This document shows, one piece after another, positions 2,021 to 63,860 of a DNA stretch of 64,000 nt. Source of the DNA: Actinomucor elegans. Lineage: Eukaryota; Mucoromycota; Mucoromycetes; Mucorales; Mucoraceae. The translations under genes and the position numbers were made by a program. The stretch lies in assembly GCA_026027325.1 (NCBI GenBank), contig JAMSLZ010000006.1:1364001-1428000 (forward strand). The letters run 5' to 3'. The notes under the pieces are model-generated. The model made no database searches, had not been told where the DNA came from, and saw nothing but the letters and a program-made list of their open reading frames with translations. The first letter of the stretch is position 1, and each line of letters begins with the position of its first letter.

Positions 2021-2080
2021 AAATGCAGTGATTTGTTTTGAACATTGTATGTTCAGATGCAACAATTTACCGAAATCAAT
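2021..2080 (+). repeat. Dispersed tRNA-like element, copy 1
   Basis: The copy shows the 5' block as aaATGCAGtgatttgTTTTGA followed by ACAT, then TTCAGATGC, ACAATTTACCGAAATC. Spacing between the two blocks matches the other copies. Confidence 0.6.
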
Positions 2081-2199
2081 GAAAAGATTTATTGATCATT
2101 AGATCTAAATTACATAAAATGCAAGTCTTTATTGGTAGCCAGCTATTTAAATGAATAAAAATGCACGTTGAGCTTTAGTAAAGTATTATATGATTCCAA

Positions 2200-2263
2200 C
2201 AGATTCAATGATTCAATTTGAACATGTACTAATCATCAAAAACGATATTAAACCAAAATCGAC
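2200..2263 (+). repeat. Dispersed tRNA-like element, copy 2
   Basis: The copy has AGATTCAATGATTCAATTTG then AACATG, a variable middle with ATCATC, and a decayed 3' block ending CCAAAATCGACTG. It is more diverged than copy 1, which lies 120 bp away. Confidence 0.5.
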
Positions 2264-2299
2264 TGAAGGATATAGTGAAGTTAAAAATGAGTCAAAAAT

Positions 2300-2362
2300 G
2301 GCCCGATTCCACATCTGAATACACATCCATGATTTTGTTTAGAATAAATCACTGCATCTATT
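2300..2362 (-). repeat. Dispersed tRNA-like element, copy 3 (inverted)
   Basis: Read on the minus strand it begins AATAGATGCAGTGATTTATT, continues through a variable middle to TTCAGATGTGG, and ends near ATCGGGCC. It is inverted relative to its two neighbours. Confidence 0.55.
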
Positions 2363-2948
2363 AAAACATTTGGGTTATTTGCAAAGGATATGAGCATTGA
2401 GCATGCAATTTACTCGTTTCAACAGTCCAACATCCTCAGGAAGATATAGTGTATTAACTGAACTACATCCGTTTATGCCTCAAACTGAATAACTCGACTA
2501 TAGAAAAGTTGAATTCTTAGGTACTTTTTTTTTATTATATTTGTCCACAAGCATTACATTACGTCAATGTAGTAGACAGTATCCTTCAAACTCGATGTAG
2601 TTGCAATCTCTTCATAGTTAGATTTTGCAGTCCAAATAGCATCACTCAGAGCCAAGGTGGCTATTATGTCACCCATTTTTACATTGTTACACTCACTTAT
2701 TTTTCCTTATTATGGCTAAAGTGGCAAATGGAACAAGCTATTACAGATTAAAGGAAAATGCATCTCCACTAAAAACCCAAGCATATTATAAAAATGAGTA
2801 AGCCCAACTTGCAATCTATTTTGGAAATGAATCAATACAGGGTCATTACCTGTTTCCTAAAAGTGGCCTGATTTACATACGGGTTGATGTGCGCATGGTA
2901 TAACCGTTTGTAAATATACATGCATGCAAAGCTAGGTTTTTATTTTAT

Positions 2949-4658
2949 TTATAAGGTAAAGCTAGCTCTTTGGTTATCTAATTGAGGTTTTGTAGATTTA
3001 TAGATGGTATTTAGCAGTTGCTGTAAGTCTTCTTCGGTGGGGGTCTTGGAACGTTCGGCATCTTGGTTAGCAAGGCGATGGCCCTCTAGGCTTTCAACCT
3101 TGTTAAATAAACCCGATATGAATAATGTACGTTCTTTTGCAGCCGATAAACTGAACCTTTGTCTATTATAAGCAGGTCGGTTCAACGACTTGACCAGCAA
3201 GTCTGTTGTTTTTGTGAGATCATTAATCAAAATTTCCTCACGAGATATCCAATCCTATTAAGCCAAGTCAGCGGTCGAATCTATTATAAACAAAAAGCCG
3301 AGGTATATCCTACCTGATCTGAGAATCTACCCTTATCCAAACGATTCAAGACACCTCGAAGAGAAGCAAAATCTATCTTTTTTTGTTGCTGTACAGTGAG
3401 ACCTACACGCTGGTTATCTAAAGACCTGGAGGCGGATTTCTGAATTTGCTGCACTAAATTTTGTAACAATACTTCCTGCTTGGACCTTTCAGGTAAAGAA
3501 GCGCGCTGATCTTCCATTCTACCCCTAGAAAGCCTTTCAACTGCCTTTCCCAAGGTTGCAGCGGCCAATTCTTTGAGCTGTTTTTGTGATAAACATACTC
3601 TTTGATTATTTAATCTCGGTGCCACCTGAGATAGTCGATCGATGGCATTCAATAACTGATCCAAATCACCCGAAGAGGGACTGTCCATCATCGATTTCTT
3701 TTCTTTTACATGAATGTGAGGGATAGATTCATATGCAGGAGGAGGACTGGTGTCTTTGGGGTTGCTGAGTAATTGGCTATCATCATAAGCAGGAGGGTCT
3801 ACTTGCTGCTGTTGCTGTTCAATAGCTAATTTGCTTACGATATTCATTAAATGATCCATTTCGTCCCAGAGGACAATCATCTCGCGTGTCGCATCCCTTT
3901 CGTCAATCGACATGATACCAGCAGCTCTTTCACGCTGAAACAAAGATACTTGATCGTGTAATTGTTTCTGTAATAAAGATACATCTTTACAAGAAGATTG
4001 AGCTTGTTCGTGCTGTTGGCTTGCAGAATTGAGTTCCAATAATCGATACACATCGTTTAAAAGAGCTGCTAAGGAACACGCAAGTGTGTAATCTTGCTGC
4101 TGCGTATGGCGATGGTGATTCGAGTCTAATATTCTATACACGTCGGATATACTGGTTGCTGGCGATGATTTACTGCGAACCATCAATGTTGACGCAGGCT
4201 TGGATAGTTCTTGCAGTAAATTGGTGTTTTGAGTAATTGATCCTAATAGATTAGTCGTGATTGGTCTATCAGCTGGTTCGTCATGAGAAGGATCCGATAA
4301 ACGTCTATGCTTTTTAGGTAAATTTTTGACTATCTGTAGTAGCAGTAGATCCAAAACAGTGAGACAGATATGCTTTACTGACTGAAGCGATTCAATGACT
4401 TCGGTTGATAAACAACAAGTTTCTTGTTGCTGCTGCTGTTGCTGTTCTACTTGAGGCTGATTGTACTCCATTGGCTCATTTGAAAGACTTTCCAAGACAG
4501 GATCGTTCATCAAGTCATCAGTGTTTGCAAGTGGTTCTGGGACCTGTTGAACCTAGTACGTATAAGTTATAGGTCGGAAAAAAAAGAAGGTATAAAGGAA
4601 TGCTTACTGTAGTAGTAGTTTTGTTGGCAGACTTTCTTTTTCTTTCCAAGGTAGCCAT
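2949..4658 (-). CDS. Q-rich protein with a repeated NQR-type motif, function unknown
   Basis: I do not recognise this gene. Three exons join in frame: a short first exon beginning MATLERKRKSANK (ATG at 4658), a large exon from VQQVPEPLAN to GRFSDQ, and a last exon from DWISREE to the stop at 2949, giving roughly 530 residues. The N-terminal part has Gln runs and a low-complexity PPAY-containing linker, with two related segments DVYRILDSN and DVYRLLELN. The C-terminal 250 residues contain five to seven spaced copies of a short motif (NNQRVCLS, EDQRASLP, DNQRVGLT, NRQRFSLS, DNQRASFTL), each preceded by a predicted helix with an R/S-L pattern. The basic start (ERKRK) could be a nuclear signal. 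No transmembrane segment or signal peptide is visible. The gene is head-to-head with KAR5, the starts 254 bp apart. Confidence 0.7.
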
Positions 4659-4912
4659 GAACAAATTAAAGAGAAAGAGAAGAATAGGAAAACCCGCTCT
4701 TTTTTCTTTTTGGGTATTTTATACCAAGCTAATCAATTTGTACAAATAGTTGGTACATGCTCCTTAAGATTGTCCCCTTTTGTATGTTACCAGATCCTCT
4801 AGTTGGTTTAGACTCCTTTTTGTATTTGGAAACTTGTAAGAAACTATGATCTATCATGACGCGTAAAAAAATAAAATAAAAAGTATATAGGTTCTTTCTT
4901 TAATAGCATACA

Positions 4913-7077: not shown

Positions 7078-7209
7078 TCTTTTCTACTGTACACAGTAGC
7101 ACCAGGCAGCATTTTCAAATACCGCATCGCTTTTGTTTTTGTTATTTTTTTTTTTTTTTTTTGTAAACTACTTTTTGATAAAACTTTTTAAGTACAATCT
7201 ATAGGAGAT

Positions 7210-8583: not shown

Positions 8584-9288
8584 AATGATTCGATTCAAAC
8601 GGGTCAAGATGCGACATATGCTCGAATCAACAAAAAAGGGTTGAAGATCATGAAAAGATGGAGCTGTGGCACTATTTACTGGCATGCCTCTCTTTAACTC
8701 TAGTAAAACATCTACCGCTTCCCACTTTGGTTTGATCGTTCTCTAATTTGCTCATCTATCAAAGATTTAACTCAATAAAACACCTTCTCTGTACAACAAG
8801 AGAAACTCATAAACCAAGTTCGAGCCTCTCATTCAATGTTTTAAATATTAATGTGGAGATATACTGTAATACCAGCGTTGGTTACAATATTTTACTAAAT
8901 ACCCTACACGAGATCATTATTCCATATGAATCCCGTACTTGGTCGTCTATGATTACTATCAGCACTCAGACGGTCATATAGAGTAATGAGTAACCCAGAA
9001 ATCGCTACTATATGTACGTGCAACAAATTCTTGATAAATCAATGAATATATATATATATATATAGATATATAAATGCTTGTCTTATTTTACGAGACAACC
9101 GCAATTGATTAGAATCAAGGATAGAAAGGGTTTCATTATTCTTTTACAAGTCTTTTTTTTTCTTTCTACCTATAGTTACCACATCATTGACAACCGACTA
9201 TCGATGGGTGTAATGAGATGGATTTATCCTACAGCTAATCAACGATTATACTAATTGCTACAACTTGCCCAAAGTACTTGCTACTTAT

Positions 9289-9316
9289 CAGATGCGACGT
9301 TTGGCCGAGATCGATG
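9289..9316 (+). repeat. Dispersed tRNA-like element, 3' half
   Basis: The sequence CAGATGCGACGTTTGGCC followed by GAGATCGATG is one of the best matches to the 3' block. The 5' block is not recognisable upstream, so this is a truncated or decayed copy. Confidence 0.5.
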
Positions 9317-9405
9317 GGGAGATCTGTAGATCTAATTACTTGAAATGCATGTAATTTATCATATAACCCTCTTTAAGCCTTGGCTAAATGACAATCTTAT
9401 TCAGT

Positions 9406-9460
9406 ATAATAGCTCATTCTGAACGCATAATTGTCATTAGGTGCGTAATATAACGAGTAA
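9406..9460 (+). repeat. Dispersed tRNA-like element, 5' half
   Basis: AATAGCTCATTCTGAAC matches the A-box-like 5' block. The 3' portion (TAGGTGCGTAATATAACGAG) is only weakly similar. Confidence 0.35.
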
Positions 9461-10251
9461 ATTATTTTTGATAATACCGATATAATAGTAAATGATGTAA
9501 GCGTTATTCTATAGCAATGTCTTCTACACGTGCTTATCACTCTCGATAGATCCCAATTTAATGCCGCATATGAAAACTATGGGTTTATATTCATCTATTA
9601 AACCATTGTTTAACAGTCGTACAAGATTGTAATTTCTGATTCCAAGTATCAGAGAACCTTGTCCGTTAAAATTAAAATTGTGATTAGTAAGATGATGATT
9701 GAGCTTTGATTGTTTAATCTAATAAATCAAAGACAAATTTGGTTCTCTTTCGAATGGAATAAAGTACCTCTGACGCTAATAGTACAGATAAAAAATAAAA
9801 AAAAAATGACAACAGCATTGGAGTTCCGTAGTTTGTTTTACTTGCTTTTATCCCTATATAAATGTAGCCATTCAAGGGAATGTATTTCACGTTACATAAT
9901 ACCAGATAATTAAAGCTCTCTCTCGGTTGGCTGCTTCTTTAGACGCAATTGATGGCTATAGGTATTTTGTTGAGTCATTATCATGGAATGCTTATTTTCA
10001 ATCTCAGCTAGCCGTGGTTGAAGTTTAAGTAAAAAGTACAGATCTTCTATAGTTTTTATCAAGATACTGACACATAATTTTTTTTTTTTTTTTTTTTGGT
10101 ACATTGTTGTAGAAAATCTCTTGGGGAAAAAAAACGAATAAAACAGTGATAGGGTAATTATTCTGATGCCTTCAAGCTTTTCTACGTAATAATTTTATTA
10201 CTTTTTTTTTTCAATATAGGAAAAGAAAACCGTAATGCTCTAGTAAGAAAC

Positions 10252-20748: not shown

Positions 20749-21570
20749 ATGAAACTCACATTATCCAATTGTATTACTTTGCTTGCGTTGATGACTGTGC
20801 CAGCCGTTTTGGCTCAATCCGAAGAGGCTGCTGTTGACCAAGGATTGCAAGTGGACGCTTCTCAAAATGTGAATGAAATGGAAACTGGTGCTATTCCTAA
20901 CGTTAACGAAATGGGAATCGATGCTATCGAAAACGCTCAAGCCATGGAAGCCGGTGCTATCGAAAAGGTCAACGAATTTGAAACTGGTGCTGTTCCAAAT
21001 GTTAATGAAAAGATCGCTGATCCTGCCCTAAATGTCAACGAACTTCAAGCTGGTGCCACTGAAAACGTCAATGCAATGGCCAAGGATGCTGCTCAAAATG
21101 TTAATGAATTAGAAGCCAATAAAATGGAGGCCGAAACTGCTCAAAACATGAACAAAATTGAAACTAGTATTACAGAAAATATCAACGTAGTAGAGAACGC
21201 TGATGTGAGTAGCTATTCGCCTGCAGTTGCAGTAGCTTCATTCACTGGTCCCAGTATTGTAGGTGAATTCAGTTTCTATCAAGACAGCACTGGTAAGGTA
21301 GTTGCAACTGGTGCCCTTCAACGAGGATTGGTTCCAGATGCACAGTATCACTTCAGATTCCACAACGGCCCCAGCTGTGAAGCTTTAGGTGAGGCTGTTA
21401 CTCATCACTCGTTCAAGTCAATGCGTGTAATGGAAGTAGGAGGAACTGCACCTATTCAAGAAACAATCGAAGACGTTCACTTGACTGGACAAAATGGTTT
21501 GGTAGGCTCACCTTGGGTCTTGTCGGATGGTTATCAAGATGTAGCTTGTGTTGTACTCAAAGGACAATAA
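20749..21570 (+). CDS. Secreted protein: 11-residue repeats plus a Cu/Zn-SOD-like domain with degenerate ligands
   Basis: The single-exon frame gives 273 residues. I chose the ATG at 20749 because it opens a typical signal peptide (MKLTLSNCITLLALMTVPA, cleavage likely after VLA); an upstream in-frame ATG would add residues that spoil it. Residues about 37-151 are ten tandem units with an 11-residue period (ASQNVNEMETG, AIPNVNEMGID, AVPNVNEKIAD, PALNVNELQAG and so on), one unit carrying a five-residue insertion. Residues about 165-273 resemble the Cu/Zn superoxide dismutase fold: GEFSFYQDSTGKVV, QYHFRFHNGPSCEALG, VHLTGQNGLVGSPWVL and DVACVVLKG. The usual HVH copper pair is changed (HFRFH) and the His of the final 'VVH' position is missing, so dismutase activity is doubtful. 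It may be a cell wall, stress or metal-binding protein; the function is not established. Confidence 0.75.
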   Translation: MKLTLSNCITLLALMTVPAVLAQSEEAAVDQGLQVDASQNVNEMETGAIPNVNEMGIDAIENAQAMEAGAIEKVNEFETGAVPNVNEKIADPALNVNELQAGATENVNAMAKDAAQNVNELEANKMEAETAQNMNKIETSITENINVVENADVSSYSPAVAVASFTGPSIVGEFSFYQDSTGKVVATGALQRGLVPDAQYHFRFHNGPSCEALGEAVTHHSFKSMRVMEVGGTAPIQETIEDVHLTGQNGLVGSPWVLSDGYQDVACVVLKGQ

Positions 21571-26750: not shown

Positions 26751-29164
26751 GCGCTTTTGTATACTATATAATATTATCATAAAACACGAATTGCATTTTT
26801 AGACACAATAAATCATACAAAATAGCCTAATAACAAGAAGTCTTATCAATATCCATATATGAGTAATCTTTTTTAGCGGAATTATAGATATTTCCACACT
26901 TTCTTGACTGGGTAAATAATGGGGTGATGTTCCATGATACAGCGGCTCTCGATTTAATGAACATTTGAGTTGGTAATAACCTCGATATAGATAGTTCCCA
27001 GTCAAATGTAGCTTTTCTGATTTAATGACCTGATAAAAAATAAAATAAAATAAACAACATGGTATCGCTAAATCAAGGTAATTCTAAATAGGTAATGGGA
27101 AAAGCTATCAATGAAGAATTAAACAAACGTGGAAAAAAAATATCTATGATGTTAAAAAGAACTATTGAATTCGAATAAACTATTTGTTAATTAAAACAAC
27201 TCATTCTGTGCATGAGCTAGAGATCAAATGCGACATTTAGCCAAGATTACTCAAAATCGTGTGCGTCCAAGTAAAGAATACCATGTCAATTTCTTCAATT
27301 ACAATTTGCGAAAAAAAAAAAAATTGCGACTCAGAAATCCCCCCCCCCAAAATCAAAAATCATAATAGAAAACGTGATAACTACATATGCGTACCTCAAG
27401 TATTTAATGAAGGTGATGTATACTTGTATTCTCTTCCCAATGGCACATATTTTATAAACTATTAAAATAAAGAGACTTGTTATAGAAAGCGAAAACTGCT
27501 CTATGGCCGAAGTTGTCTATCGCTTTATTGACAACACGATGCTGCTGTTTCATGTATATCATTAAAGAGGGCGCGCTGGATTTAATGTATCCCCCGAGAA
27601 TTAATAACATACATATGTTCATTGATGAGTTCAATACTATTGTTTAATTTTTTTTTATCGAGGTACCCCCATGGGGCTACCATTTAAATTCAGATGTCAA
27701 TGAAATCGTTACTCTAGTCTATACTGCTGCTACTGCTGCATATCCATATATCAACTAGTATAATCCAGATGCACATTGGGGATATCCAAAAAAAAAAGAG
27801 TAAGAGTCTATGAATAGTCTATAGATAGTCTATAGGAAATCGATAGAGAACCTACAGAGATAACCAGGTATTGTATACCAAATGGCAATGAGTCAGCAGT
27901 ATCATGCAATGTTGCAAACTTTTCTGACTATTCAGTAATATGTAGTTGCAGCATAGTGACATTTTCATTAAATGTATAACTTCTTCATTTTTGTATAGGC
28001 TTTGCTGTATGAAAGAGCGTTGTCTATCCTTTACCGACTCGGCCTGTTAGCTTTTGTGTGTAACCCATCTTTGTTCTTACACAATCTTATGCGCGATTCC
28101 TGTCATTTTTATATTAAATCTACTATATCTCTAGGTCATCAACCTCAGTTCATGGTATGATCATCTGAACAAGGAAAGCGATAATACGTGATTGAATTTA
28201 ACACTTGATATTTCACTTCAAGCTTAGGTGTATGGGTAACATGGACTTGGAAAGATTTGCCGACTAGCATTCAAGCTATGTACTTAACAAGTGTAACGAT
28301 AGTGCATTGCATTAGCCCCTCATAACTGTGTCAATGACTAGACGGTTTGGGGTAGGGAACAAAATTCTGTGATCACAGAAGCTAAGGCCGAATAGCTCTT
28401 TCGACCGTTTTAGCTGCAGAAGGCATGGAATATGCTTAGTACTCATTGACAAATATAAGCGTGCAAATATTTAAATTCGGAATATGTCAGTAATTGGCCT
28501 GTGGAACCATTTAATTCGTATCTACGCGTACTTTTTGTAACAATAACCAAAGATCAAAAGTAAAAGTTACCTAGATTCTAAGCAGAAATCATCCAAAAAT
28601 CATCTTGTTTTTAGTAAGGTAAAACGGAAGTGTAAGCAGCATGTCACAACTAAGTGATGATGCATAACTATCAATTCAATTCATTGAAACATATAATATT
28701 GGGCAGGAGATGATTCAGCGTCAGTGACACATGGGGCCTCTTATTATGAAACATGCGCTAGTGAAGACCTATTAAACTTTTTTTTTTGTGCCAAATTATC
28801 GCCTTTAATCGTAATAATGGAAATTATGAGCTTAAAGGCTGCAGTCGAGCGGTTATTATAGTTGATCCGTGCAATATTACACAACGGTAGTACGTGTTTT
28901 CGCAGTGTAAATTGACCTTTCCTTCTTGAATCCCGAGAATCACTTTCAAAAAAAAAAGTAATTTTGTGATCCTATAATAAAGCACCTAGTTTGTGCTTCA
29001 GCTTTCCTAATTTGAACTCTACGATCTGATTCAAATCGCGTTATCTTTCCCCTTTTCTCTCAATTGAAAAAAGAGGCTTTTTTTGTTTCTCTTTCCTATT
29101 TTCTCACCTACTCTGTTTTGTGTGTAATTATTTTGCTTTTCTAGATTATAAAGTCGAGAAATAT
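26751..29164. other. Intergenic region between MRD1 and neurofibromin
   Basis: These 2.4 kb contain no supported gene. They hold a copy of the dispersed element (27192-27252), a near-palindrome at 27663-27681 (GGTACCCCCATGGGGCTACC), short direct repeats of AGTCTAT around 27806-27833, and a pyrimidine-rich tract before the neurofibromin start (about 29040-29130). Confidence 0.6.
27192..27252 (+). repeat. Dispersed tRNA-like element, MRD1/NF1 spacer copy
   Basis: It shows ACAACTCATTCTGTGCATG, a short variable middle, then TCAAATGCGACATTTAGCC and AAGAT. Both blocks are clear. Confidence 0.6.
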
Positions 29165-38098: not shown

Positions 38099-38420
38099 AC
38101 AGATTCGCCCTGTCATAGTTTTTAAGTTTTGATAACAAAAAACATCAAATATAATCATATAATAGTAGTATTAATAGTAATAATAATCCGCCAACTTTCT
38201 TTAATATAATAGCAAAACCCCTTTTTTATATAATCTATGTTTACAAGCAATAATAAAAACTCTATGACCTCCTCTCCTTTCACCTATTCTAATTCTTGAT
38301 ATAGCAAGTAAAACACTTCCGCCGTATTTCAATTTGGTGAGGCCATTTTGCTATTGAAGATTGTAAATCACAATTGTACGTATGAAACATTTAATGTAAC
38401 CTCAAGATTGTGATACAAAT

Positions 38421-38497
38421 GGATGCAGTAGTTTATTCTAACCATAGAGCATGTACTAACCTAAAACGAAGTTTGACCGAGACTTGTCGAGAGATCC
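38421..38497 (+). repeat. Dispersed tRNA-like element
   Basis: The copy reads GGATGCAGTAGTTTATTCTA, ACCATAG, a longer variable middle, then GAAGTTTGACCGAGACTTG. It has a longer inter-block spacing than most copies. Confidence 0.55.
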
Positions 38498-38760
38498 ATT
38501 GATCAATAGAATTAGTTTATATTGAAAATGTTTTGTAATTTACTACTAATCATTGATGCGTTGTAAATGCGCCGTACGTTACTTCCGTAATGGCTCTAGT
38601 AAAAGCAGTGACATTTTCTAAACTTGGGAGAGTAACTGTAATTTGAGATTACACTTTGACCAACTTAGAAAATCTATAGATCATAGTAGTTCTAGTTTAA
38701 ATAAAATGCAAGCAGAATACAATAGAATTCTTATTGATTCTCATCGAACAACCGTTTCTA

Positions 38761-38825
38761 TAGATGCAGCAGCTCATTTTGCACATGTTATATTATTCAT
38801 ATGTGACATTTCACCGAGATCATTC
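38761..38825 (+). repeat. Dispersed tRNA-like element
   Basis: This is one of the best copies: TAGATGCAGCAGCTCATTTT, GCACATG, then CATATGTGACATTTCACC and GAGATCATT. Confidence 0.65.
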
Positions 38826-39198
38826 CCATGAACTAATGTTCGAAATGACAGGATTTTTGAAAAAATTAAGACTATTATCCATGGGATGAAATTTTAAGTG
38901 CTGCACCCTTTTCTTTTTTAGAGCGCCAACACAATTACCAAAAAAAAATCCACTGTTTTATAAAGGGTATAATTTATGCACTATTTAATACTTTAATAAA
39001 TTCTATACAAATTCTATTATTACACTTTACGTGTAATATAGCGCGTCATTGAAGCTCAAACTTGGGGCACAAATATGTCTGATGTCGCATAAACTTCGAC
39101 CTGAGACTGTGGTGAGTGACTGCTAAAGCACAACGCTTTGTAGAACTGAATCGCTAAGCGTGGTACGTCTTTCCCTGTTAGTTTTTTCAACGAAAAAC

Positions 39199-39602
39199 AT
39201 GGAGAAAAAAGGTAAAATCTCGATTAGATCCCGCTTTCACGCGACATTTTTACTTATTCGATTCTTTCTAGCTGCTCAAGTAGAAAGACCTGTCGTGTTT
39301 TTCGACATTTCCATTGGCGATGTAGCTGTCGGTCGTATGAAAATGGAGCTATTCTCGGATATTGTACCCAAGACGGCCGAGAACTTTAGGTAAAATAATT
39401 GCAATCAAATGTCTAATGATTCGATTTGTCACTAAACTCCATATTATTTAGACAATTATGTACTGGAGAATTCAAGTAATTATTAGTTTGATATTTGCTT
39501 TTTTTTTGGGGGGAAGAAATTCAAGGACATACTCACCTCTTTCTTTTATGTGATATAGGCGCAACGGTCAACCTCAAGGATTCAAAAATTGCTTGTTCCA
39601 CA

Positions 39603-44058: not shown

Positions 44059-44642
44059 GGATAGTTATGATAACAAGTTATAAGTAGAAGACGAAAAAAA
44101 AACGCGCTTTTCGAGGCAAATTTCGTTTATTTCAAAAGACTTGATGAGGACAATCGCTAAAAGACCTATGAAGACAGGTTTGTTTTTTTTTCAAAAAAAA
44201 AAATAATAAGGCAAGCGAAGAAAAATTGGTCCAAACTATGCGGTCACTGCAGGCGGATTTTGCGCTTTTTTTGAGGCAAGATTAAAATGCGCGGCACAAC
44301 AGGCGCAACTATACTAAAATAATAAGCGGGTTTGGTTCTATCGACCTTAATCTTGTTCATATTTCAGAAAGCTTGTATTGTCATATATTTTTTTATTACT
44401 TGATCTTATCCATGTTGATAATTTTTTTATTGAAATGATCATCCAACCTGCCATAGCAACTACATCTGCTGCACTATATATGTTTTTTTTAGTGTATTGT
44501 TCACTTTATTCATTAGCATATACCAAAAAATGATGGACAGAGTGATGAAGGTTTAATGCAAAGTCATATTACAAGCTTCAGTAGTTTTGTGACAATCAAA
44601 TATATTTCAGCAAAAGTATGGATACCAAACTGAGGTTAAATC

Positions 44643-44700
44643 AAATGCAGAAACTCATTTTGACCATAGACTGCATTCAGATGCTATATTACAAGTTTAG
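44643..44700 (+). repeat. Dispersed tRNA-like element
   Basis: AAATGCAGAAACTCATTTTG followed by ACCAT is a strong 5' block; ATTCAGATGC begins the 3' block, which then diverges. Confidence 0.5.
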
Positions 44701-44867
44701 CTGGATCCATTGATTACTCACTTTAGATTACAAGTTAGCGATTGATGAACCTATTACAATCACTGTATTAATGCAGTACATTTAATATACTGCATCTATC
44801 ATTTGGTAACTTGCAAATGAGATACATTTTATTTAGTCTTAATCGAATTACTTGTAATTTTCTCGTC

Positions 44868-47972: not shown

Positions 47973-50551
47973 ATTGTTGGTAAGCTGTATTGGGTGAAAG
48001 TATAATTTTTTTCTGGAGCAACGTTTGTATTGAACAAAGCAGCACCGAGAATGACTGCTAAACTTTGCGATCTCAATCATTATACCTTTGCAATATTAAG
48101 AGGGGATTGAAATTCTGGATGCTCTTGATTGGTGATGAAATCAGGAAAAAGATACTTTTTTTTTCTATGTTCGGTTCTGATCACTCCATTTACTTTAATT
48201 CGATAGCTGTATAATATATATATATATAATATCGGTAAGCAACAAATACTAGGGAAATTTGTATATAATTTTTGATACATTAAATTACGTAAAAACTATG
48301 CTAGGTTTCCTTAAAACCAAATTGTTTCATTAATGAGCTTTGATTTTTTGTCGTCTTACATTTTTGCTTGTAACTCTAGTATATGTAAGGTACAACTATC
48401 GAAAAAATATTTATGAATATCATTCAGATGGTTGTTTATTTTATTATTAATAGTCATACTTCAAAGATAATGTATTCACGCCCCAGAAAAAAAAATTGGT
48501 GAGAATGTTGACCCAAGGAGGGTTTACACCTATCTCTTAAAATCTTAGCAAAGTTATGACGATTATATTACACTATCATTTGATGCTTATGCTGTATTTT
48601 TTCAATTATGATCTAATAATGCTATCGAATGTTGAATATTCTGAATAGTTTCATATGATTTATACCTTACTAAAGAAGTCTACATATAGATCAGTCTTAT
48701 ACTTATCAAATATCCCACATGAAAAAGAAAGTAATTCCCATAAGATCCATATCTAGAATCCAATGTCACCATTAATCACTCAAACAACCATTTAAGATAA
48801 CCAGTAACTATATATAAGTTACTGTATGTGTGAATAAGATACAGTATCGGATAAGTCTCAAACCAATTCCAGCAAACATTTCTTTTACCCCATCTAATAA
48901 TCATCCTATTTCCTAAAGAAAGGCTACTTCAATTTCTTCCCAAGTACATCACATTATAACAAGTAGAATTTAGTATAACCTTTGTTTAAACTGCAATATA
49001 ATCATTATATACTACTATACTCGCCATTGTTTAAAAAGAAATAAGCATCCTATTAATAATCTTGATCTAATGATCAATAGATCTCTTGCCCGATCTTGAA
49101 CCAATGTGGCATCTGATGAAAACTTTGTCTTATATATTGAGCTACCTCATCTACTACAATATTAAGAGTACATATATAGAAAAAACGATGAGGTGACATT
49201 ACAATAGTTTGCTCATGTCAGTGATATGCTTGTGGATAAATTTCAGTCTTTTTGAAAAGATGCCTGTAAACACATCTCACATGGTTTCGTGGGCGTTCGT
49301 ACCCATACACGGAAGATATAAACGTCTAATGTTAGTCTACACATAAAAACGATGTGGTGTAACTCTTCAATTGATATAACCATTTTAGTGGATGAGCGAT
49401 CCCATATCTAATGAATTTCGAGTTAGTATCATTGGAAGAATTTTTTACTGGAAAATCAAAAACATAACGTATCCGTGAGCGCTTGACTCTCTGGTGAATT
49501 CAAAACACAATTGTGTGTGATTATGGCGATAGCTTGCTGTTTTGTTGTGATCTCCAACAAAGTTCCGTCGGCCAATGAAAATCGTCACTTTGTGTTTCAG
49601 CACATATCAACGTTTAGTGTCAAACTATTGTCTAATAAAATTATAAAATATATGTCATTAGAAACACCGTGATTGTTTCTATGGGGGTTTGGAAGAAAGG
49701 AGCTTTTTTTTTCTCGGTTTACTGGAGATCTAGATACGGTTGTATGACTTTATTAGAATCCTCTTTGGTGTATGAACACGAGTCACAATCTTGCTTGTTT
49801 GTTGGGTGCCTGGTCCTATTGATAGGCTATATACACTGTTATTGTTATTGTTTTTGTTAAACTGATCATGATATACATCAGTTGCTATAATTTATCTCGG
49901 ACGTATTTATTGTAAAAAGTATAGTAAAAAACTGTAGTTTTCTACAGTTTTCTTTTTGTCAGTAGAAATAATGCTGCATACGTGTATGCAAGTCTGCTTC
50001 CGTTGCATGTCGAAACGTTAAACGTTTTAGTGACAAAATAATGCTTCGTCTCGTATCAATCAAGTACGACGTTACAATACATAAGAAATAAGGTGGCAAT
50101 AAGAATAAAATATATAGGCAGGCTGGGTGCTGTCTATTTGAAATAGGTAATTTGCGACTATTCCAATACAATGGAGCGCGTCGTTCTAGTGAATCACATG
50201 CATTAAATCACCCTAACTCCGCAGTAAGACTAGCGTCTACTTATTCACTGAAGATGCGAAGTGTATGTCATGAAATGACAGCACAGAAAGTTTAAATCGG
50301 ATAAATCCAGCCGCAAATTATATATATATATGTGTGTGTGAATCACGTAAAAAAAAAAAAGGCTGCTGACCTAACCTAGTCCAGAGCGAATCACTGATAA
50401 ACCAATCTTGTAACCCTTTATAATAGTAGTGATTTTACGTCACAATTCAAAATATCAGGTTACCCAAAAGAAAGAAAAAATTTCTCTTGAACTTGTTTTC
50501 TTTTCCTTTCTCTTCCTTTCTTTTTCATAAAAAATATATATAAAAAAAGAG
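47973..50551. other. Intergenic region between RRP45 and the LEA-like gene
   Basis: These 2.6 kb separate divergent genes. There is one inverted copy of the dispersed element (49086-49155), short (TA)n tracts, and a CT-rich leader just before the LEA-like start (about 50485-50530) with a TATA-like TTTATAATAG near 50417. No gene is supported. Confidence 0.6.
49086..49155 (-). repeat. Dispersed tRNA-like element (inverted), most tRNA-like copy
   Basis: On the minus strand it reads GATGAGGTAGCTCAATAT, a 17-nt middle, then ATCAGATGCCACATTGG and TTCAAGATCGGG. GGTAGCTCAATAT resembles a pol III A box and GGTTCAAGATC a B box, better than in any other copy. Confidence 0.6.
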
Positions 50552-53044
50552 ATGTCTCAAAACGCGTTAAATCCTAATGTTCAAGCTGCTATCGATTCTG
50601 CAGTCGGTAGTAAAGCAATCGATGTCTATGCTTATCTCGAGAATACTGCCATTGACAGTGATGCGAAAGACACAGTATCCGCTCCGGTCGATCCCTCTCC
50701 TGTTGCTATTGTCTCTTCTAACGACGAATCTGAAAAAACCGAAGCTAAAAAGGACGTGAAAGAGGTTATTCCCGAGGTAGCCGCTGCTGCTACTGATGAT
50801 AGCACAGAAGAAGCCATGGAAGCTAAAGAAGACGTGATTGAGGAAATCCATCAAGTTGTTCCCGAGGTTGCTCCTGCTGCTGAGGATCAAGTCAAAGAGG
50901 AAGCTATCGAAGCCAAGGAAGACGTGATTGAAGAAATTCATCATGTTGTACCCGAAGTCCCCGCCGCTGCTTCCGAGCCGGTTATTGAAAAACAATCAGA
51001 AGTAAAGCCTGATTTGGACGCTGCTGTCAAGAGCGCTGTTGATTCCGTTGTTGGTTCTGCTGCTGTTGACGTGTATGCTTATTTGGAAAAGGCTACACCT
51101 TTGGTCGAAAAGGTAGAGGAAAAGGTAGTTGAAATCAAGGAAGAAGTGGCAGAAAAGGTAGAGGAAGTTGCTCGTGAAATCACTACTGGAGAAGAAGAGC
51201 CTGTTGCTGAAGCCAAGAGCGAGGTAGTTGAGGAAATTAAGGAAGTAGTCCCCGAAGTTCCCGCTGCTGCTGTCGACGAGACAAAGGAAGAGGCTCTCGA
51301 GAACAAGGAAGAGCTTGTCGAAGAGATCAAGGAAGTCGTTCCTGAAGTTGCTCCTGTTGCTATGGATCAAGTCAAGGAAGAAGCTGTTGAATCTAAGCAA
51401 GACGTTACTGAGGAAATCAAGGAAATCGTACCTGAAGTTGCTCCTGTTGCCGTGTCAACTGCTACAGTAGAACCCGTTGCTGAGAGCAAGCCTGTCGAAG
51501 CTGAAAAGAAGCCTCTCCAAGTCGATTTGAAGGCTGCTGTTGAGTATGCCATCGAGGCTGCTGTTGGCTTTGGTGTTATTGATGTTTATGCTTATTTGGA
51601 AAAGGTTAACCCTACTGTCAAGCAAACTCCTGCTACTGCTATTGAAGATCTCAAGACACAAGCCCAAGCTTTGACCGAAACTGTCAAATCCGCTGTTTCT
51701 ACTACTGAAGAAGGAGAAAAGCTTGCTACTGTTGAAGATATCCAGACTGAAACTGCTAACTTGGCTGATTCTGTCAAGGTTGCTGCTGTCGCTGTTGGTA
51801 CTGCTGCCACTGCTGGCGTCGCTGCTATTGTCTCTGCCAAGAAAGGTGATGTTGAGGAAGAGTCTAACCAGGTTGAGAAGACCGACTCCAAGCCCGTTGA
51901 CGTCACTCGTGCTGTTGAGGCTACTGAGACTGAAACTAAGGCTCCTCAGGCCGTTGAAACTGTAAAGGAAACTGTTAGTGAAGCGGCCGAAGAAGCTAAA
52001 AAGGAAGCTCCTGTTATCCAAAAGGAAATTGATACCAAGGTTGATGATGCTAAGATTGCCGTCGCTGAAACTGCCCAAGAAGCTAAGGAAACTGCTACTG
52101 CTACTGTTGAGGAAGCCAAGAAGCAAGCTCCTGTTGTTCAAAAGGAAATTGATACTAAGGTTGAAGATGCTAAGATTGCCGTCGCTGAAACTGCCCAAGA
52201 AGCTAAGGAAACTGCTACTGCTACTGTTGAGGAGGCCAAGAAGCAAGCTCCTGTCATTCAAAAGGAAATTGATACTAAGGTTGAAGATGCTAAGATTGCC
52301 GTCACCGAAACTGCCCAAGAAGCTAAGGAAACTGCTACTGCTACTGTTGAGGAGGCCAAGAAGCAAGCTCCTGTTGTTCAAAAGGAGATCGATACCAAGG
52401 TTGAAGGTGCTAAGACTGCCGTCGCTGAGACTGCTCAAGAAGCCAAGGAAAATGTCACTGCCACCGTCGAGGAAGCCAAGAAGCAAGCTCCTGTCATTCA
52501 AAAGGAAATTGATACTAAGGTCGAAGATGCTAAGACTGTCGTCGCTGAGACTGCTCAAGGAGTCAAGGAAACTGCCACTGCTACCACCGAGGAAGCCAAG
52601 AAAGAAGCCCCAGTTATTCAAAAGGAGATTGATACCAAGGTTGATGAGACTAAGGCCTCCGTTATTGATTCTAAGCCTGCTGCTACAATCACTGAAACTG
52701 TTAAATCCACTGTCGCAGTTGCACAAGACAAGATTGCTGAAGTTCAAAAGCAGATCCCTGCTATTCAAGAAGAAGTTAAAAAGTCTATTGAGGAAATCAG
52801 AACTGCACCCGTCACACAAAAGGTCTTGGAAGCCACAGGTGTTCAAAAGCCTGAACCTGCTGTGCCTGTTCCTGTTGCTGCTAGTGAAGTTAATCCTCAA
52901 GCTCCTATTGTTGCTGCCGAGCCTGTCACTACTGCCGCTAAACCTGCTGCACCTGCACCTGCACCTGCACCTGCATCTGCACCTGCTGCTGTACAAGAAC
53001 AAACTCCTAAGCCCGAGGAGAAGAGCAAATGTACCATTATGTAA
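50552..53044 (+). CDS. LEA-like repetitive Ala/Glu/Lys/Val protein with C-terminal CaaX box
   Basis: I do not recognise a named family. The intronless gene encodes 830 residues without a signal peptide or transmembrane segment. Three copies of a 25-residue module (AAIDSAVGSKAIDVYAYLE, AAVKSAVDSVVG..VDVYAYLEK, AAVEYAIEAAVG..IDVYAYLEK) lie near residues 10, 155 and 330. Between them are acidic units of the type EEIKEVVPEVAPVA. Residues about 485-710 are six copies of QKEIDTKV in a 40-residue unit that includes ETAQEAKETATATVEEAKK. The composition and 11-residue sub-period resemble group 3 LEA and apolipoprotein-like amphipathic helices. A Pro/Ala linker leads to KSKCTIM, a CaaX box (Met-ending, so a predicted farnesyl site). 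The inference is a membrane-anchored, largely helical or disordered stress or organelle-surface protein. Strong codon regularity (GCT, GTT, GAA, AAG) suggests high expression. Confidence 0.8.
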   Translation: MSQNALNPNVQAAIDSAVGSKAIDVYAYLENTAIDSDAKDTVSAPVDPSPVAIVSSNDESEKTEAKKDVKEVIPEVAAAATDDSTEEAMEAKEDVIEEIHQVVPEVAPAAEDQVKEEAIEAKEDVIEEIHHVVPEVPAAASEPVIEKQSEVKPDLDAAVKSAVDSVVGSAAVDVYAYLEKATPLVEKVEEKVVEIKEEVAEKVEEVAREITTGEEEPVAEAKSEVVEEIKEVVPEVPAAAVDETKEEALENKEELVEEIKEVVPEVAPVAMDQVKEEAVESKQDVTEEIKEIVPEVAPVAVSTATVEPVAESKPVEAEKKPLQVDLKAAVEYAIEAAVGFGVIDVYAYLEKVNPTVKQTPATAIEDLKTQAQALTETVKSAVSTTEEGEKLATVEDIQTETANLADSVKVAAVAVGTAATAGVAAIVSAKKGDVEEESNQVEKTDSKPVDVTRAVEATETETKAPQAVETVKETVSEAAEEAKKEAPVIQKEIDTKVDDAKIAVAETAQEAKETATATVEEAKKQAPVVQKEIDTKVEDAKIAVAETAQEAKETATATVEEAKKQAPVIQKEIDTKVEDAKIAVTETAQEAKETATATVEEAKKQAPVVQKEIDTKVEGAKTAVAETAQEAKENVTATVEEAKKQAPVIQKEIDTKVEDAKTVVAETAQGVKETATATTEEAKKEAPVIQKEIDTKVDETKASVIDSKPAATITETVKSTVAVAQDKIAEVQKQIPAIQEEVKKSIEEIRTAPVTQKVLEATGVQKPEPAVPVPVAASEVNPQAPIVAAEPVTTAAKPAAPAPAPAPASAPAAVQEQTPKPEEKSKCTIM
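52021..52660 (+). repeat. 120-bp tandem repeat inside the LEA-like gene
   Basis: The phrase AAAGGARATYGATACYAAGG recurs at exactly 120-bp steps (52021, 52141, 52261, 52381, 52501, 52621). Units 2-4 are nearly identical even at silent sites, indicating recent expansion or gene conversion, while the outer units are more diverged. Confidence 0.95.
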
Positions 53045-53540
53045 ACAACCAAAAGAAAGATACGACACGTCCTTTAACCAAGGAATTTTTATATATATTA
53101 TACATTGCATGTCACATACCAAGGAAAAAAAGTGTAATTCAAAAATGAAAAATTACCCAGCAGATTTTATTACGATGCGTTAATAGAAAACTTGTAAAAA
53201 AAAAAAAAAATAAAAGCGGGTTGAAAATAGTAATAAATGTTGTATAAAACCTGGAAGTAAAATTAAATGGGAGACTTGAATGTATATAGCTGTAAAACTA
53301 GCATAATGAAGAAATGCCTTTAGGAGATCAGTCATTCATGAGCAGCAATAGTTATACAACTGGCTCGTGCTTTAGTGATATTTGATTTAGCACAGCAGGT
53401 TTATAACCGAATGACATTCAATTTAATGATAAACAGGCTTTCATTAAGAGAAAGAAAATGCTGATCAAAAATTATAAATATACAATGTGATCAGATCATT
53501 CCATATAGCAAATGCATTACAGTAGATCCGAAGTTATGTT

Positions 53541-53605
53541 AGATACAGTAGCTCATTTTAAGTAGGGACTATTAAACTAATGTGACATTTGACCGATCTC
53601 GGCCT
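53541..53605 (+). repeat. Dispersed tRNA-like element
   Basis: AGATACAGTAGCTCATTTTA then a middle ending AAACTAATGTGACATTTGACC and GATCTCGG. Both blocks are clear. Confidence 0.65.
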
Positions 53606-53699
53606 AGATCGCGAAAGATGCAACTTGAAGGTTAAAAATCTACAGAGCGAGCAAGTTGTCTGAAGTAGCAAAAACATTAGAATTTATCGAAAGTTTTAT

Positions 53700-53763
53700 C
53701 AGATGCATTAGCTAATTCTGAGCAATGATTATTAAACAGCTGCGACATTTAACCGAGATCATC
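53700..53763 (+). repeat. Dispersed tRNA-like element
   Basis: CAGATGCATTAGCTAATTCT, GAGCAATG, then ACAGCTGCGACATTTAACC and GAGATCATC. Very close to the consensus at both blocks. Confidence 0.7.
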
Positions 53764-54886
53764 ATCGTATGCTTCAGATGAATGCACCATGGCAAATTTA
53801 TCAAACTCAATTTTTTGGATTCAATGATTAAAATTGATATGCTCAAAGCTCGTATCGTTATCGTAAAGAACGAACAATACAAGGTAGTAACTTGGCACAT
53901 TAATGCAAGTTAATGCAAATTGGATTTTCATTTCAATAGTGTGAAATTCAAAAGTACTTGAAAAGAAATATTTAATTTTGAGTATTTTTACTGGATGGCC
54001 TTCAAAGATTTTGTAGATAATCTATAAGCCGAAGTATACATGTTTTATCAAAACTTTACACTAAGAAACTGATTCTGGCAAATATCAATCCAGTCAATTG
54101 GCCAAAGGTTTCCGAAAAAAAAAAAAGGTGTATATTCCAAGTTGCAAAAGATTTTCTTTGTTAGCTATTGCTCTAGATGAGTTGTTTCTGCTTTTCGAAA
54201 TTTTTTACAGAGATACACTCACGATGCATACATTCGATCCTTATCTATTGATGAGACTACTTTACTACGTATATCATTAGTAAAGGTGGAGCTCAAATAC
54301 CAAATATAACAAAAATAGATCAACATGGTGCTATTTAAAGATACTACAAAGTCGCTGCAAATATTTATAATAGTGATTAAGTACAATACAGTGGATACAT
54401 CGCGATAGCAGCCATTGGTTTTTATTGTACTGTATATATGGTATTATATAGTAGGTGTCACATCTTTTATATACTATTGTCTATCGCGATACTATTAAAT
54501 GTACTGTAGTTACTATTATAGTTTCTATAACTAAATGACCATTATCAGTAGCAATAAAACATGTACTTCAGAGCCGCACGTTAAGTAATCCGATTCAATC
54601 AAAATGGAGAGACCTTGCCCAATCACTGCCAGTCTTTCATCATATACCATGTTCATTCGCATAATAACATTACATAGGTAGATATGCCTCCGAAAAAAGC
54701 TATACGGTTGAGATGGATATGCATTTTAAAGCATATAGTTGGTTGCAGAGCGACTCTGATCTTATACATACATCTGATATTTGAAAAGCTACTACTATGA
54801 TAGGTATAATGCGGCAAGGCGTAGATATGAATGAGATTTATATTTACGCAGCTGTACTTTTTAGTTATTTTATAAAATATAAATAT

Positions 54887-57541: not shown

Positions 57542-59666
57542 CGTATGTATGTAATAATAATAATAAAAAAAAAGAAATGTGTCAACTTTTATAGAAAAGG
57601 TCCTCTTTTTATACTCTTTAGAAATCACCTAATACATTTATAGAAAGCAGTTTTGCATATATAAGGCAAGAAGGGGTTTTATAAGTACTTTTGGGCCAAT
57701 TATGCTTTGAAAAGAATCCCACATGTTATACAATTATTGCATGGATCTGTCAACTATCTCCCATGATATACAATGCTTAATTCAACTGTATCAGGACGTA
57801 ATTACCACGGATACTGGATTCCGGTCATCTATTCTTCTTTTCCTAAAAGAACAGCAGATGCGACAAAACTCAATTTGATTGGTTTGATCCAATCAAAAAA
57901 TGAAGCGCTTAATTTGATTCGTTCTTTGAATGACGTACCTTTTCTTGGTTCGTTACTGATATAATATTAGTAATTGCGTAGTTGCAGTTATGGCTTGGAG
58001 AGTGCATCAACAGAAACACCTCCTCCAGTTGATATTAGTCAAGTTTTCATCAGACAAACATTTTGTAAATGAGGATTACAAATGAGGCTTGCCAGTAGAT
58101 CATTTGCGCAAAGTATTAGCCTAGATCTGAGGTTTTATCAGATGTAGAAACTCATTTTGCGTATGAATCACTTATCCGATGCGATGTTTGGTCAAAATTA
58201 GACGAGATCATTTGCATCATTCCTAAACTTTCTAAGCTATATTTTTTTAGGTCCAGAAACGAAAAAAAAAAAAGATGGACAGAAAGTCTCGTACTAAAAC
58301 GTAAAAATTAAATATATAAGACGACAAGTAAAGATCCACATCTTGAACACTTAATTAAAAGAAAGATGTAGAAAGTAATTTTCTTTAGAGTAGTATAGAC
58401 TTTGTGAAACATTGAATGGAAAAGTGTGCTTTAGGACGAAAAAAAAAAAAAAAAAAAAAAAAAAAACTATGCCATTCATCCATATCGTTGTGTAGTCATA
58501 GAAAGCATCTGCCCAACTAAAAAAAAGTATATATCATTTTATTCATTTTTCAGGAATGAATAGTAGAGCTCTGCTTATTGCTGCGACACATACAATCTCA
58601 TACTTAAAAAGATTTCGGCGAGCGCACTAAAAGAGAAGGAAACCTTGTGTTTTGTCTTTGCTACGAATAGATCTTTATGATGCTTACATTAAAATTTATG
58701 CCTAAAAAATAGAAGCTGCAGCATAACAGATGACAAATACACACGCATGCTTGGGACCATTAATGCAATCTGTAGAAAAAGAAATATTCTCTTGATGATA
58801 TGAAGTTTTCTCTTAAATATCAAGAGAGATTTTGCGCCATGACACCAAAATGCAAGAAGGTCGGAGACTTCTAGCGAATTGCCTCAAATATTTACATATC
58901 CAAAATACAACATGCTCTCCTATAGAATTCCTTAAATTCAAAAGTGATACTCCGGTTTAAATATGTTGTAGATGTGCTTAATTAGTTTTAAATATTATGT
59001 ACTATAGGAAAATCGAGGAAGGAAGAAGCTTAAGAGGAAGAAGAAGCACTATATTTGATAGCTCGTTATCCAATAAAGGCTTCAGATGCGTATAAGCATA
59101 CTTCTATTGAAAGAATGGTCATTATACAAGGATGCTACAGGGACTTGTTATGATACGAATACGTAAAATGCAGTCTATATGCAGTAATTCTAATGAGACC
59201 GCTCTTAATTTTTATATAACGCGTCTTTTTTTAGGCTTTATTGTGTTATTATGCAGTTCATATACTCACTGCAACAGGCCCACAAACAATTTTTTTTAAA
59301 TGAAGATTGAATAATCTGAGATTTAGAAACAAAGAAAAACCATTCCTTAATTGTGAAGCAATGACTCCTAATTGTTTATGAAACACAGACCTTGGGTCAT
59401 GTCAGCGAATCAAGCACTTTTTTGTACAACGATGACCATGAAAGTGCCAATACGTAGTATTTCGTGCCTTTCATTACAAAGCATATCATTGGCTGAGATT
59501 CCTATACTGCTGCCTGATTTTCTTTTTTGTAGTACTTTTGCGTGATATGATTCAGCGCGTGAGTGAACTGCTGCAGAAAGGAAGAGAGAGTGTGTGTGTA
59601 TAGCTAAATTCTTTTCTAAACCAAGTTCCTTTTTTTCTTTCTTCTTTTTACTTTTTGTAACAAATC
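57542..59666. other. Intergenic region before the coiled-coil gene
   Basis: These 2.1 kb hold one copy of the dispersed element (58139-58212) and a 28-nt A run (58439-58466). A 63-codon frame at 57773-57964 (plus, with GYWIPVIYSSFPKRT) has plausible composition but no recognised relative and no clear continuation. The last 150 bp are pyrimidine-rich and look like a promoter leader. Confidence 0.5.
58139..58212 (+). repeat. Dispersed tRNA-like element
   Basis: CAGATGTAGAAACTCATTTT, GCGTATG, then ATCCGATGCGATGTTTGGTC, AAAATTAGACGAGATCA. The 3' end has a small insertion. Confidence 0.6.
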
Positions 59667-62613: not shown

Positions 62614-62890
62614 TCAACAATGTACGTGGTATTTTGATCGAAAACAAGCTAGCGCATATGTTCTGTAATACTATGTATCTCTTATAAAAATAAATTATAT
62701 TCTGGACTTTTATCAATATATATATATATATATATAACATGATCGCATGTAATGCGTCGATCTTGTTAGTGCCTTGTGGGATGTCCTAGACTATCAAATG
62801 ATATTATTATTGTGCCAATTTCCGAATTCAGGAAGAACGATGCATAATCAACCATTGTATTATAATGAAGTTGTATTCTATATAATATAT

Positions 62891-62953
62891 ACAGCGCCTC
62901 GTTCTGAGCATGAAGCACTAGCTAGACGAGGCATTTGACCAAGTCGACTGAAA
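62891..62953 (+). repeat. Dispersed tRNA-like element
   Basis: ACAGCGCCTCGTTCTGAGCA, then a middle with GCTAGACGAGGCATTTGACC and AAGTCGACTG. The 5' block is diverged but GAGCATG is kept. Confidence 0.5.
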
Positions 62954-63065
62954 TCAAAAATCGAGTATATATTATGATATGAAATAATAAACTTTGCTAC
63001 TAATTATTATCATCAAATGAAATATATCTATTGTACTGCAGGTTTAAAAAAAAACAGGTTTAAAT

Positions 63066-63132
63066 GGATGCAGACACTCATTTTGATCGTGGATTAACTA
63101 ATCAAGTGCATCATTTGGTCGAAATCAATCGC
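63066..63132 (+). repeat. Dispersed tRNA-like element
   Basis: GGATGCAGACACTCATTTTG, ATCGTGG, then AATCAAGTGCATCATTTGG and TCGAAATCAATCG. The B-box-like GGTCGAAATC is especially clear. Confidence 0.65.
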
Positions 63133-63202
63133 ATGCTCATGCTATTGAAATAAACTAATTCATTGTTTATCGTCAAGAAAAAAAAATAAAACATGTACTT
63201 TA

Positions 63203-63265
63203 GTAGATACAGCTGTGCATTCTGAACATGCATCACCACTCCAATGCGACATTCGGCCAAGAACA
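63203..63265 (+). repeat. Dispersed tRNA-like element
   Basis: TAGATACAGCTGTGCATTCT, GAACATG, then CCAATGCGACATTCGGCC and AAGAAC. Confidence 0.65.
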
Positions 63266-63800
63266 AACAAGATTAATGTACCATAAACATTTTATTGTTA
63301 TTAGTCGTTGATAATTCGTTCTGATTGGTGTCTAGACCTCTAGTTTCATATTTTCTACTATAGTAAAATCGCTATGTCGTCCAAACAATATTTGTGTGTT
63401 TCGATGGCACCTGTTAAACAATTGTTAAGATTGAATCCAGTAATTTCAGACAGTCTACGTCATGATTCTATTTATTGGATTATGGAGATTTAGTTAAATT
63501 ACACAGCTGAGCAAGAATTTCAATTGCATCCAGTAATTTTACAATACTTCGTCATCTTGAATTTTATTGGACAATGAGAACTGACAATTGAGTCCACAAT
63601 ACAACAAAAACTTTCAGAGGTTGGCTTCAAACTTATAAGAAATATATAGAGTATGGTACTCTTTTGAATGAATATTTTTTTGTAGTTGTTCATTAAAGAA
63701 CGCAGAAATCATGAGTACATTATATCAATAGTATGAGTGATGGCAGGGTAGGCTTAGTGTTTTTTGGATCATGATCTCTATCAGTATTTTTGAGGTTTTA

Positions 63801-63860
63801 ATAGATGTAACAGTATATTTTGAACATGAAGTATCCTTATCAAATGTGGTATATCTGATT
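63801..63860 (+). repeat. Dispersed tRNA-like element
   Basis: ATAGATGTAACAGTATATTT, TGAACATGAAG, then TATCAAATGTGGTATATCTG. The 3' block is weak. Confidence 0.45.

What the first reader, a model, noticed from the sequence alone, without database searches (positions are those of the whole stretch)
2021..63860. A dispersed family of about 20 degenerate 60-70 bp intergenic elements with tRNA-promoter-like blocks
Reading the spacers side by side shows one recurring pattern: a 5' block close to GATGCAGTAGCTCATTTTGA followed by (a/g)CATG, a variable 10-20 nt middle, and a 3' block close to CAGATGCGACATTTGGCC followed by GAGATC. I count about 20 copies (2021, 2200, 2300-, 9289, 9406, 19013, 23369, 27192, 38421, 38761, 44643, 44868-, 49086-, 53541, 53700, 58139, 62891, 63066, 63203, 63801), in both orientations, all between genes and none seen in exons or introns. 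TAGCTCA...GAGCA resembles a tRNA D-arm/A box, and GG(T)TCGAAATC or GGTTCAAGATC in the better copies resembles a B box at roughly tRNA distance. This suggests an old tRNA-derived SINE. Alternatives are a MITE, a conserved regulatory or replication element, or a structural RNA. Copies are too diverged for a recent burst, yet the two blocks stay recognisable, which could mean selection.
Basis: partly seen in the sequence, partly recalled or inferred. Interest (0 to 1): 0.85.

Follow-up and report, generated by a model that had tools for sequence, protein, structure and literature searches.

The report
Decayed repeat families in a mould
The short look-alike stretches between the genes of this Mucor-like mould are pieces of two larger, very old repeat families that make up about a tenth of the DNA sampled; they look like the decayed remains of mobile DNA rather than tRNA-derived elements or working switches.

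Summary
One 23-nt block has 422 genome-wide matches against 0 for the reversed pattern. But the 60-70 bp block is a shared core inside two longer families. Family A is usually a head-to-tail dimer of ~172-bp monomers plus an AT-rich body. Family B is one core plus a ~454-bp body ending near CCAATGAAATC, often followed by a second partial body. Together they cover 11.4% of the window and 10.0% of 50 kb of random sequence. The tRNA-SINE reading fails: no tRNA match, no covariation. Inverted-repeat ends and target-site duplications were sought and not found. Copies are roughly 25-35% diverged with GC-to-AT drift; in family A the core is no better kept than its spacer; in family B it is better kept than the body, which stays open. 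Best reading: relics of non-coding transposable elements of unresolved class; no autonomous partner found.

The parts
2003..2759 (+). family A element: two cores (2023, 2204) plus AT-rich body
   Evidence: A profile hit 2053-2759, 184 bits (that model was trained with window copies); cores 39.1 and 31.6 bits with a model not trained on the window
2300..2372 (-). weak core copy on the other strand, inside the A element above
   Evidence: 9.0 bits with the window-free profile, 19.9 bits with the A model
9230..9447 (+). family A-like piece, core at 9277 (40.7 bits), second weak core at 9407
   Evidence: 18.6 bits with the window-free profile
9639..10013 (+). family B body without a core directly before it
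   Evidence: B body profile 114 bits
18943..19741 (+). family A element: cores 19012 and 19184 (172 bp apart) plus body
   Evidence: A profile 242 bits; cores 48.3 and 18.3 bits
23365..23843 (+). family A piece: one core plus body
   Evidence: A profile 97 bits; core 33.7 bits
27116..27708 (+). family B unit: core 27195-27253 plus body reaching the 3' end block (here TCAATGAAATCG)
   Evidence: 161 and 171 bits; end printed
38342..39314 (+). family A, cores 38423 and 38764 (341 bp, about two monomers apart) plus body
44599..44714 (+). single core copy
   Evidence: 23.7 bits
44743..44911 (-). family A-like core copy
   Evidence: 20.8 bits; 53 bits A model
48966..49123 (-). family A-like core copy
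   Evidence: 39.1 bits; 57 bits A model
53467..54240 (+). core (53543) followed 160 bp on by a family B unit (core 53703 plus body)
58059..59077 (+). family B unit: core 58142, body 58226-58660, second partial body 58688-59077
   Evidence: 165, 117 and 100 bits
62850..63622 (+). three cores in a row (62890, 63068, 63208) plus A-like body
63789..63852 (+). weak core copy
   Evidence: 13.9 bits

Best explanation
These are the decayed remains of at least two related families of non-coding transposable elements in a Mucor-like fungus. Family A is a pre-formed dimer of ~172-bp monomers followed by an AT-rich body. Family B is one monomer core followed by a ~454-bp body, often with a second partial body. 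Both share a ~58-75 bp core, which probably held signals that the once-active elements needed, such as a promoter or a binding site for the mobilising enzyme. They spread long ago through gene-bearing parts of the genome, presumably moved in trans by another element's machinery, survived between genes, and have since decayed mostly neutrally. Shown: dispersal, family anatomy, absence from predicted coding sequence, GC-to-AT drift. Inferred: transposition itself, movement in trans, and the role of the core.
For: Listed hits of four searches lie on 21 of 27 contigs (listings capped). Long units hold on held-out loci. B: profiles from half of the loci match the other half from about 50-100 bp before the core to about 500 bp after it, with a sharp end. 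A: the match continues past the second core by ~275 bp in 9 of 17 held-out clusters of one split and by ~215 bp in 6 of 22 of the other; locus L094, used in no model, carries a dimer with 172-bp spacing plus body, matching A positions 17-670 over 458 bp, E 6.5e-37. Fixed order: of 122 clusters cc 30, c 22, cB 22, cBB 18, ccc 8; neighbours within 450 bp are on the same strand in 147 cases, opposite in 14. The dimer predates dispersal: first and second monomers of one element are no more alike (0.597) than first and second of different elements (0.592), and first and later monomers differ (permutation p 0.007, 40 elements; 0.051 in the 10 from the window, random loci or spacer-fetched loci). No coding overlap in 102 clusters. 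Changes from the core consensus: C>T 24%, G>A 27%, A>G 9%, T>C 10.5% (168 mostly core-seeded copies). Family A copies not fetched by the core (9; 4 of them fetched by the spacer): core 0.68 and 0.69, spacer 0.71, body 0.64; random baseline 0.52-0.58.
Against: No feature that would place it in a transposon class was met: reversed 3' end not enriched at the 5' side, no target-site duplication signal in 27 copies, no A-rich tail by eye in the ends printed, no closeness to reverse transcriptase or Tc1-like remnants (fewer than expected within 10 kb: 3 of 92 against 9.8 and 0 of 39 against 4.2). No young copy: the longer matches of the B query reach 79-83% over 115-163 bp (41 scored). In family B the core is better kept than the body (0.736 against 0.58-0.65 in 18 copies; above every body block in 15 of 18), which neutral decay of single insertions does not by itself predict. 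First-versus-later difference is modest: the best single column has p 9e-4 among 72.
Confidence: 0.68

Rival explanations
1. The core is a selected cis-acting DNA site (enhancer, insulator, replication or chromatin site) that a mobile element once scattered and that the host now keeps.
For: Family B core better kept than body even in copies found by the body or at random; a strongly kept short block at the B 3' end, CCAATGAAATC; within 500 bp, copies face predicted gene 3' ends more often than 5' ends (26 against 9).
Against: Family A core no better kept than its spacer; GC-to-AT-biased changes in the core; the 3'-end preference is also what tolerated insertions would show and may be inflated by missed first exons; one of 5 random 10-kb stretches, in an RT-rich region, has no copy.
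Confidence: 0.15
2. A tRNA-derived SINE.
For: TAGCTCA...GAGCA resembles a D-arm; non-coding; dispersed.
Against: No tRNA or Rfam match; no covariation in the stem; several mismatches to A- and B-box consensus (recalled consensus, my reading); bodies of hundreds of bp with many T runs, which should stop pol III (recalled); no A-rich tail seen after the B end (by eye).
Confidence: 0.05
3. Dispersed satellite DNA: fragments of a once tandem ~172-bp array spread by recombination.
For: 44 of 52 same-strand neighbour distances under 700 bp lie at 137-183 bp and three more at 337-352.
Against: Clusters mostly hold 1-3 cores (one holds 6) in a fixed order; monomers of one element are no more alike than those of different elements; family B has one core and a different body; bodies are shared between loci.
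Confidence: 0.07
4. A narrower form of the best explanation (its odds overlap with it): a TIR-type DNA transposon or MITE whose ends are too decayed to see.
For: Non-coding, high copy, short, intergenic, no tail; class II elements are reported as the largest TE group in Mucorales (passages of PMC7928374).
Against: Reverse complement of the well-kept B 3' end is not enriched upstream of 47 B or 108 other cores; no TSD signal; no Tc1-like remnant within 10 kb of listed copies.
Confidence: 0.2

Closest known systems
DINE-1/INE-1 (non-autonomous Helentrons of Drosophila); features recalled, only title and start of abstract of PMC4067079 seen
   Same: very abundant non-coding old elements with internal tandem units (recalled)
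   Different: no Helitron ends established here; one degenerate Helitron_like_N hit in this genome, below cut-off, with the nearest core copies 3.8 kb away
tRNA-derived SINEs, e.g. those of Aspergillus fumigatus (PMC5063351, start of abstract seen in listing)
   Same: short non-coding dispersed repeats in a fungus
   Different: no tRNA similarity, no TSD detected, longer bodies, no tail seen
MITEs (recalled)
   Same: non-coding, high copy number, between genes
   Different: inverted-repeat ends tested for family B and not found
'Unknown' repeats of Mucor genomes in the REPET survey of PMC7011435 (passages read)
   Same: that survey reports TE coverage from 5% to 37% in Mucor and an 'unknown' class of unidentified potential elements
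   Different: its families were not available for comparison, so identity cannot be said

Membership tests
tRNA-derived SINE | head similar to a tRNA | tested here: not met
   ARAGORN and Rfam 0 in window; no tRNA among 4 weak Rfam matches at E<=5 on four well-kept loci
tRNA-derived SINE | D-arm stem kept by compensatory changes | tested here: not met
   168 cores: 76.3% paired against shuffle mean 75.5%, max 77.6%
tRNA-derived SINE | pol III transcription | not testable with these tools
   no RNA data
tRNA-derived SINE | target-site duplication | tested here: inconclusive
   no signal in 27 family B copies at this divergence; 5' end not sharply defined
MITE / TIR DNA transposon | terminal inverted repeats | tested here: not met
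   matrix from 46 of 58 family B 3' ends, reversed, not enriched upstream of 47 B or 108 other cores; ends of family A not defined, so not tested there
MITE / TIR DNA transposon | target-site duplication of fixed length | tested here: inconclusive
Helitron-like element | Rep/helicase-bearing relatives in the genome | tested here: inconclusive
   one Helitron_like_N hit below cut-off with 2 stops, nearest copies 3.8 kb away; 5 PIF1 matches at 3 places, compared with listed copies by eye only
Helitron-like element | TC...CTRR ends with a 3' hairpin (recalled) | tested here: inconclusive
   B 3' end reads CCAATGAAATC; only read by eye
LTR or LINE retrotransposon derivative | association with reverse transcriptase genes | tested here: not met
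   0, 2 and 3 of 92 hand-thinned RVT_1 places within 2, 5 and 10 kb of 240 listed copies; 2.1, 5.1 and 9.8 expected
satellite DNA | long head-to-tail arrays | tested here: not met
   clusters mostly 1-3 cores, longest 6, in the loci held; most loci are only ~3 kb long
structural RNA | known family or covariation | tested here: not met
   fold z -0.93 and -0.54 for core consensus (mononucleotide shuffles)

The most novel reading that the evidence does not exclude
A single short DNA module (the core) was shared and re-used by at least two otherwise different non-coding mobile families, without inverted repeats, a tRNA head or an RT partner. It marks a mobilisation system of early-diverging fungi that has not been described, and some B copies are still held by selection on the core.
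Probability: 0.12. Interest if true: 0.75.

Novelty: new member of a known kind. Interest (0 to 1): 0.42.

Why it matters
About a tenth of the 114 kb examined for this (window plus 50 kb random) is made of two repeat families diverged enough to be hard to see. If the same families exist in related Mucor species they would date the insertion burst, may explain part of the long intergenic stretches with neither gene nor repeat (up to 15 kb) reported for Mucor and Rhizopus genomes (passage of PMC7011435), and supply thousands of insertion markers. The shared core gives a concrete probe for an unidentified mobilisation system.

Tried and rejected
TIR/MITE: the B 5' side (GGTTAATGAAGATT) looked like the reverse complement of the 3' end (AATCTCCGTTAACC), but a matrix test found no enrichment. 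TSD scan: nothing above shuffled maxima. RNA structure and tRNA: nothing. Conservation past the B 3' end (a possible TATA after the CCAAT block): held-out profiles reach ~100 bp further in only about 3-5 of 24 and 3-4 of 21 copies. Stepwise profile extension overfits its own seeds and hit the time limit; replaced by held-out tests. Autonomous partner: RVT_1, DDE_3, Helitron_like_N, PIF1 and hAT dimer searched; none linked. The hAT search rang in no control genome, so it shows nothing. Seeding bias: core conservation on core-seeded loci is inflated (A core1 0.76 in 32 core-seeded copies against 0.68 in 9 others; B core 0.81 in 31 against 0.74 in 18). Viral-contig scan with a 22-nt core pattern: 0.
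Full report
What was checked. The window is 64 kb of a 36.5-Mb genome in 27 contigs. A window protein has its best named relatives in Mucor circinelloides, Thamnidium elegans, Helicostylum pulchrum and, over a third of its length, M. lusitanicus, so the host is a Mucor-like fungus; no tool names the species.

Is it there? Yes. A profile built from 69 copies outside the window finds 20 window copies at >=12 bits, with 0 at >=10 bits in 20 dinucleotide shuffles. One 23-nt block has 422 matches with up to 3 mismatches genome-wide, 212 and 210 by strand, and none for the reversed pattern.

How many? Five random 10-kb stretches hold 11 copies, 0 to 4 each, which scales to about 8,000. Calibrating instead on the strict pattern (4 pattern matches, among 31 profile copies, in 114 kb, against 422 genome-wide) gives about 3,300. 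Both rest on small counts. The 114 kb hold 4 pattern matches where the genome mean predicts 1.3, 3 of them in the window, so the window is richer than average.

What is the unit? The 60-70 bp block is not the element. Same-strand neighbours lie 137-183 bp apart in 44 of 52 cases under 700 bp, a ~172-bp head-to-tail unit: family A. Other copies share the core but continue into a different body: family B. Held-out tests support both. B runs from about 50-100 bp before the core to about 500 bp after it and ends sharply near CCAATGAAATC. A continues ~275 bp past the second core in 9 of 17 held-out clusters in one split and ~215 bp in 6 of 22 in the other, so its body is less well established. Locus L094, fetched last and used in no model, carries an A dimer with 172-bp spacing and about 200 bp of body. 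Of 122 clusters the orders are cc 30, c 22, cB 22, cBB 18, ccc 8, B 6 and rarer ones. In 16 loci fetched by the B body alone, a core lies directly upstream of the body in 11, one of them weak (6.9 bits); another has a core only further away. The B body has no match in the 20 shuffles. All four models together cover 11.4% of the window and 10.0% of the random 50 kb, with no hit at E<1e-3 in shuffles; window copies are in the training sets of all four, and random-locus copies in those of three.

Where are they? No feature in the 102 clusters examined overlaps predicted coding segments (25.6% of those loci; hexamer prediction). Within 500 bp, gene ends facing a cluster are 3' ends in 26 cases and 5' ends in 9; tolerated insertions would show this, and missed first exons would exaggerate it. 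Listed copies are rather fewer than expected near RT genes and Tc1-like remnants (positions partly hand-picked).

What are they not? Not a tRNA SINE by any test run. Not shown to be a TIR element. Not a satellite in the usual sense. Not a known or covarying RNA.

Selection or decay? Copies found by the core flatter the core. In family A, using copies from the window, random loci or fetched by the spacer (9 copies), core1, spacer, core2 and body keep 0.68, 0.71, 0.69 and 0.64 identity; the random baseline is 0.52-0.58. Four of the nine were fetched by the spacer, which favours the spacer; all nine were in the model's training set. In family B, using copies found by the body or in the window and random loci, and whose body match begins near its start (18 copies), the core keeps 0.736 and the body blocks 0.58-0.65, where random sequence already gives 0.51 and 0.56. 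That asymmetry may mean selection, a mixed-lineage body consensus, or constraint in the ancestral mobile elements; these tools cannot separate them. Substitutions are mostly C>T and G>A (24% and 27%, against 9-10.5% in reverse), and CpG cytosines are not less kept than others (0.73 against 0.65), so CpG-directed decay is not indicated.

How did they spread? Monomers within an element are no more alike than first and second monomers of different elements (0.597 against 0.592); first monomers resemble each other somewhat more (0.619), which may partly reflect the seed. First and later monomers differ (p 0.007, 40 elements; 0.051 in 10), though no single column is strong. The dimer thus seems to have existed before dispersal, as expected of a mobile element copied as a unit. 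The mobilising machinery was not found.

Literature. Searches of the open PMC set (20 of 161, 13 of 13, 7 of 7, 20 of 323, 1 of 1 and 10 of 14 papers listed) showed no title or abstract start that I recognised as describing these families; passages of three papers were read. PMC7011435 reports 5-37% TE coverage in Mucor with an unidentified class; its families could not be compared, so these families may already sit unnamed in such libraries.

Verdict. A real feature with the wrong label: two old, interspersed non-coding repeat families sharing a core, most likely relics of mobile DNA of unresolved class.

Noticed in passing
G000 contigs C7:46-148 kb, C3:66-236 kb, C5:182-245 kb, C16:176-228 kb, C22:2.08-2.14 Mb, C25:2.31-2.33 Mb, C1:2.56-2.61 Mb: Dense clusters of long RT open frames (many 1352-1354 aa), as expected of pericentromeric LINE clusters in Mucor (recalled); a random stretch with RT matches on C8 (L039) has no core copy.
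   Followed up: partly
window 51992-52644: Tandem 120-bp units, 5.4 copies, inside a long open frame, coding a 40-residue repeat.
   Followed up: no
window 42141-42436: Nine-bp tandem repeat coding a long QQA-rich stretch in a glutamine-rich open frame on the minus strand.
   Followed up: no
window 20839-21109: 33-bp (11-residue) repeats in the N-terminal part of an open frame that looks secreted to me.
   Followed up: no
G000:C12:669835-670089: Only Helitron_like_N match found in the genome, below cut-off and with two stops; nearest core copies about 3.8 kb away.
   Followed up: yes
family B 3' ends, e.g. in L069 and L026 (printed): Well-kept ACCAATGAAATC block that looks like a CCAAT box; weak hints of a further block downstream in some copies.
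   Followed up: partly
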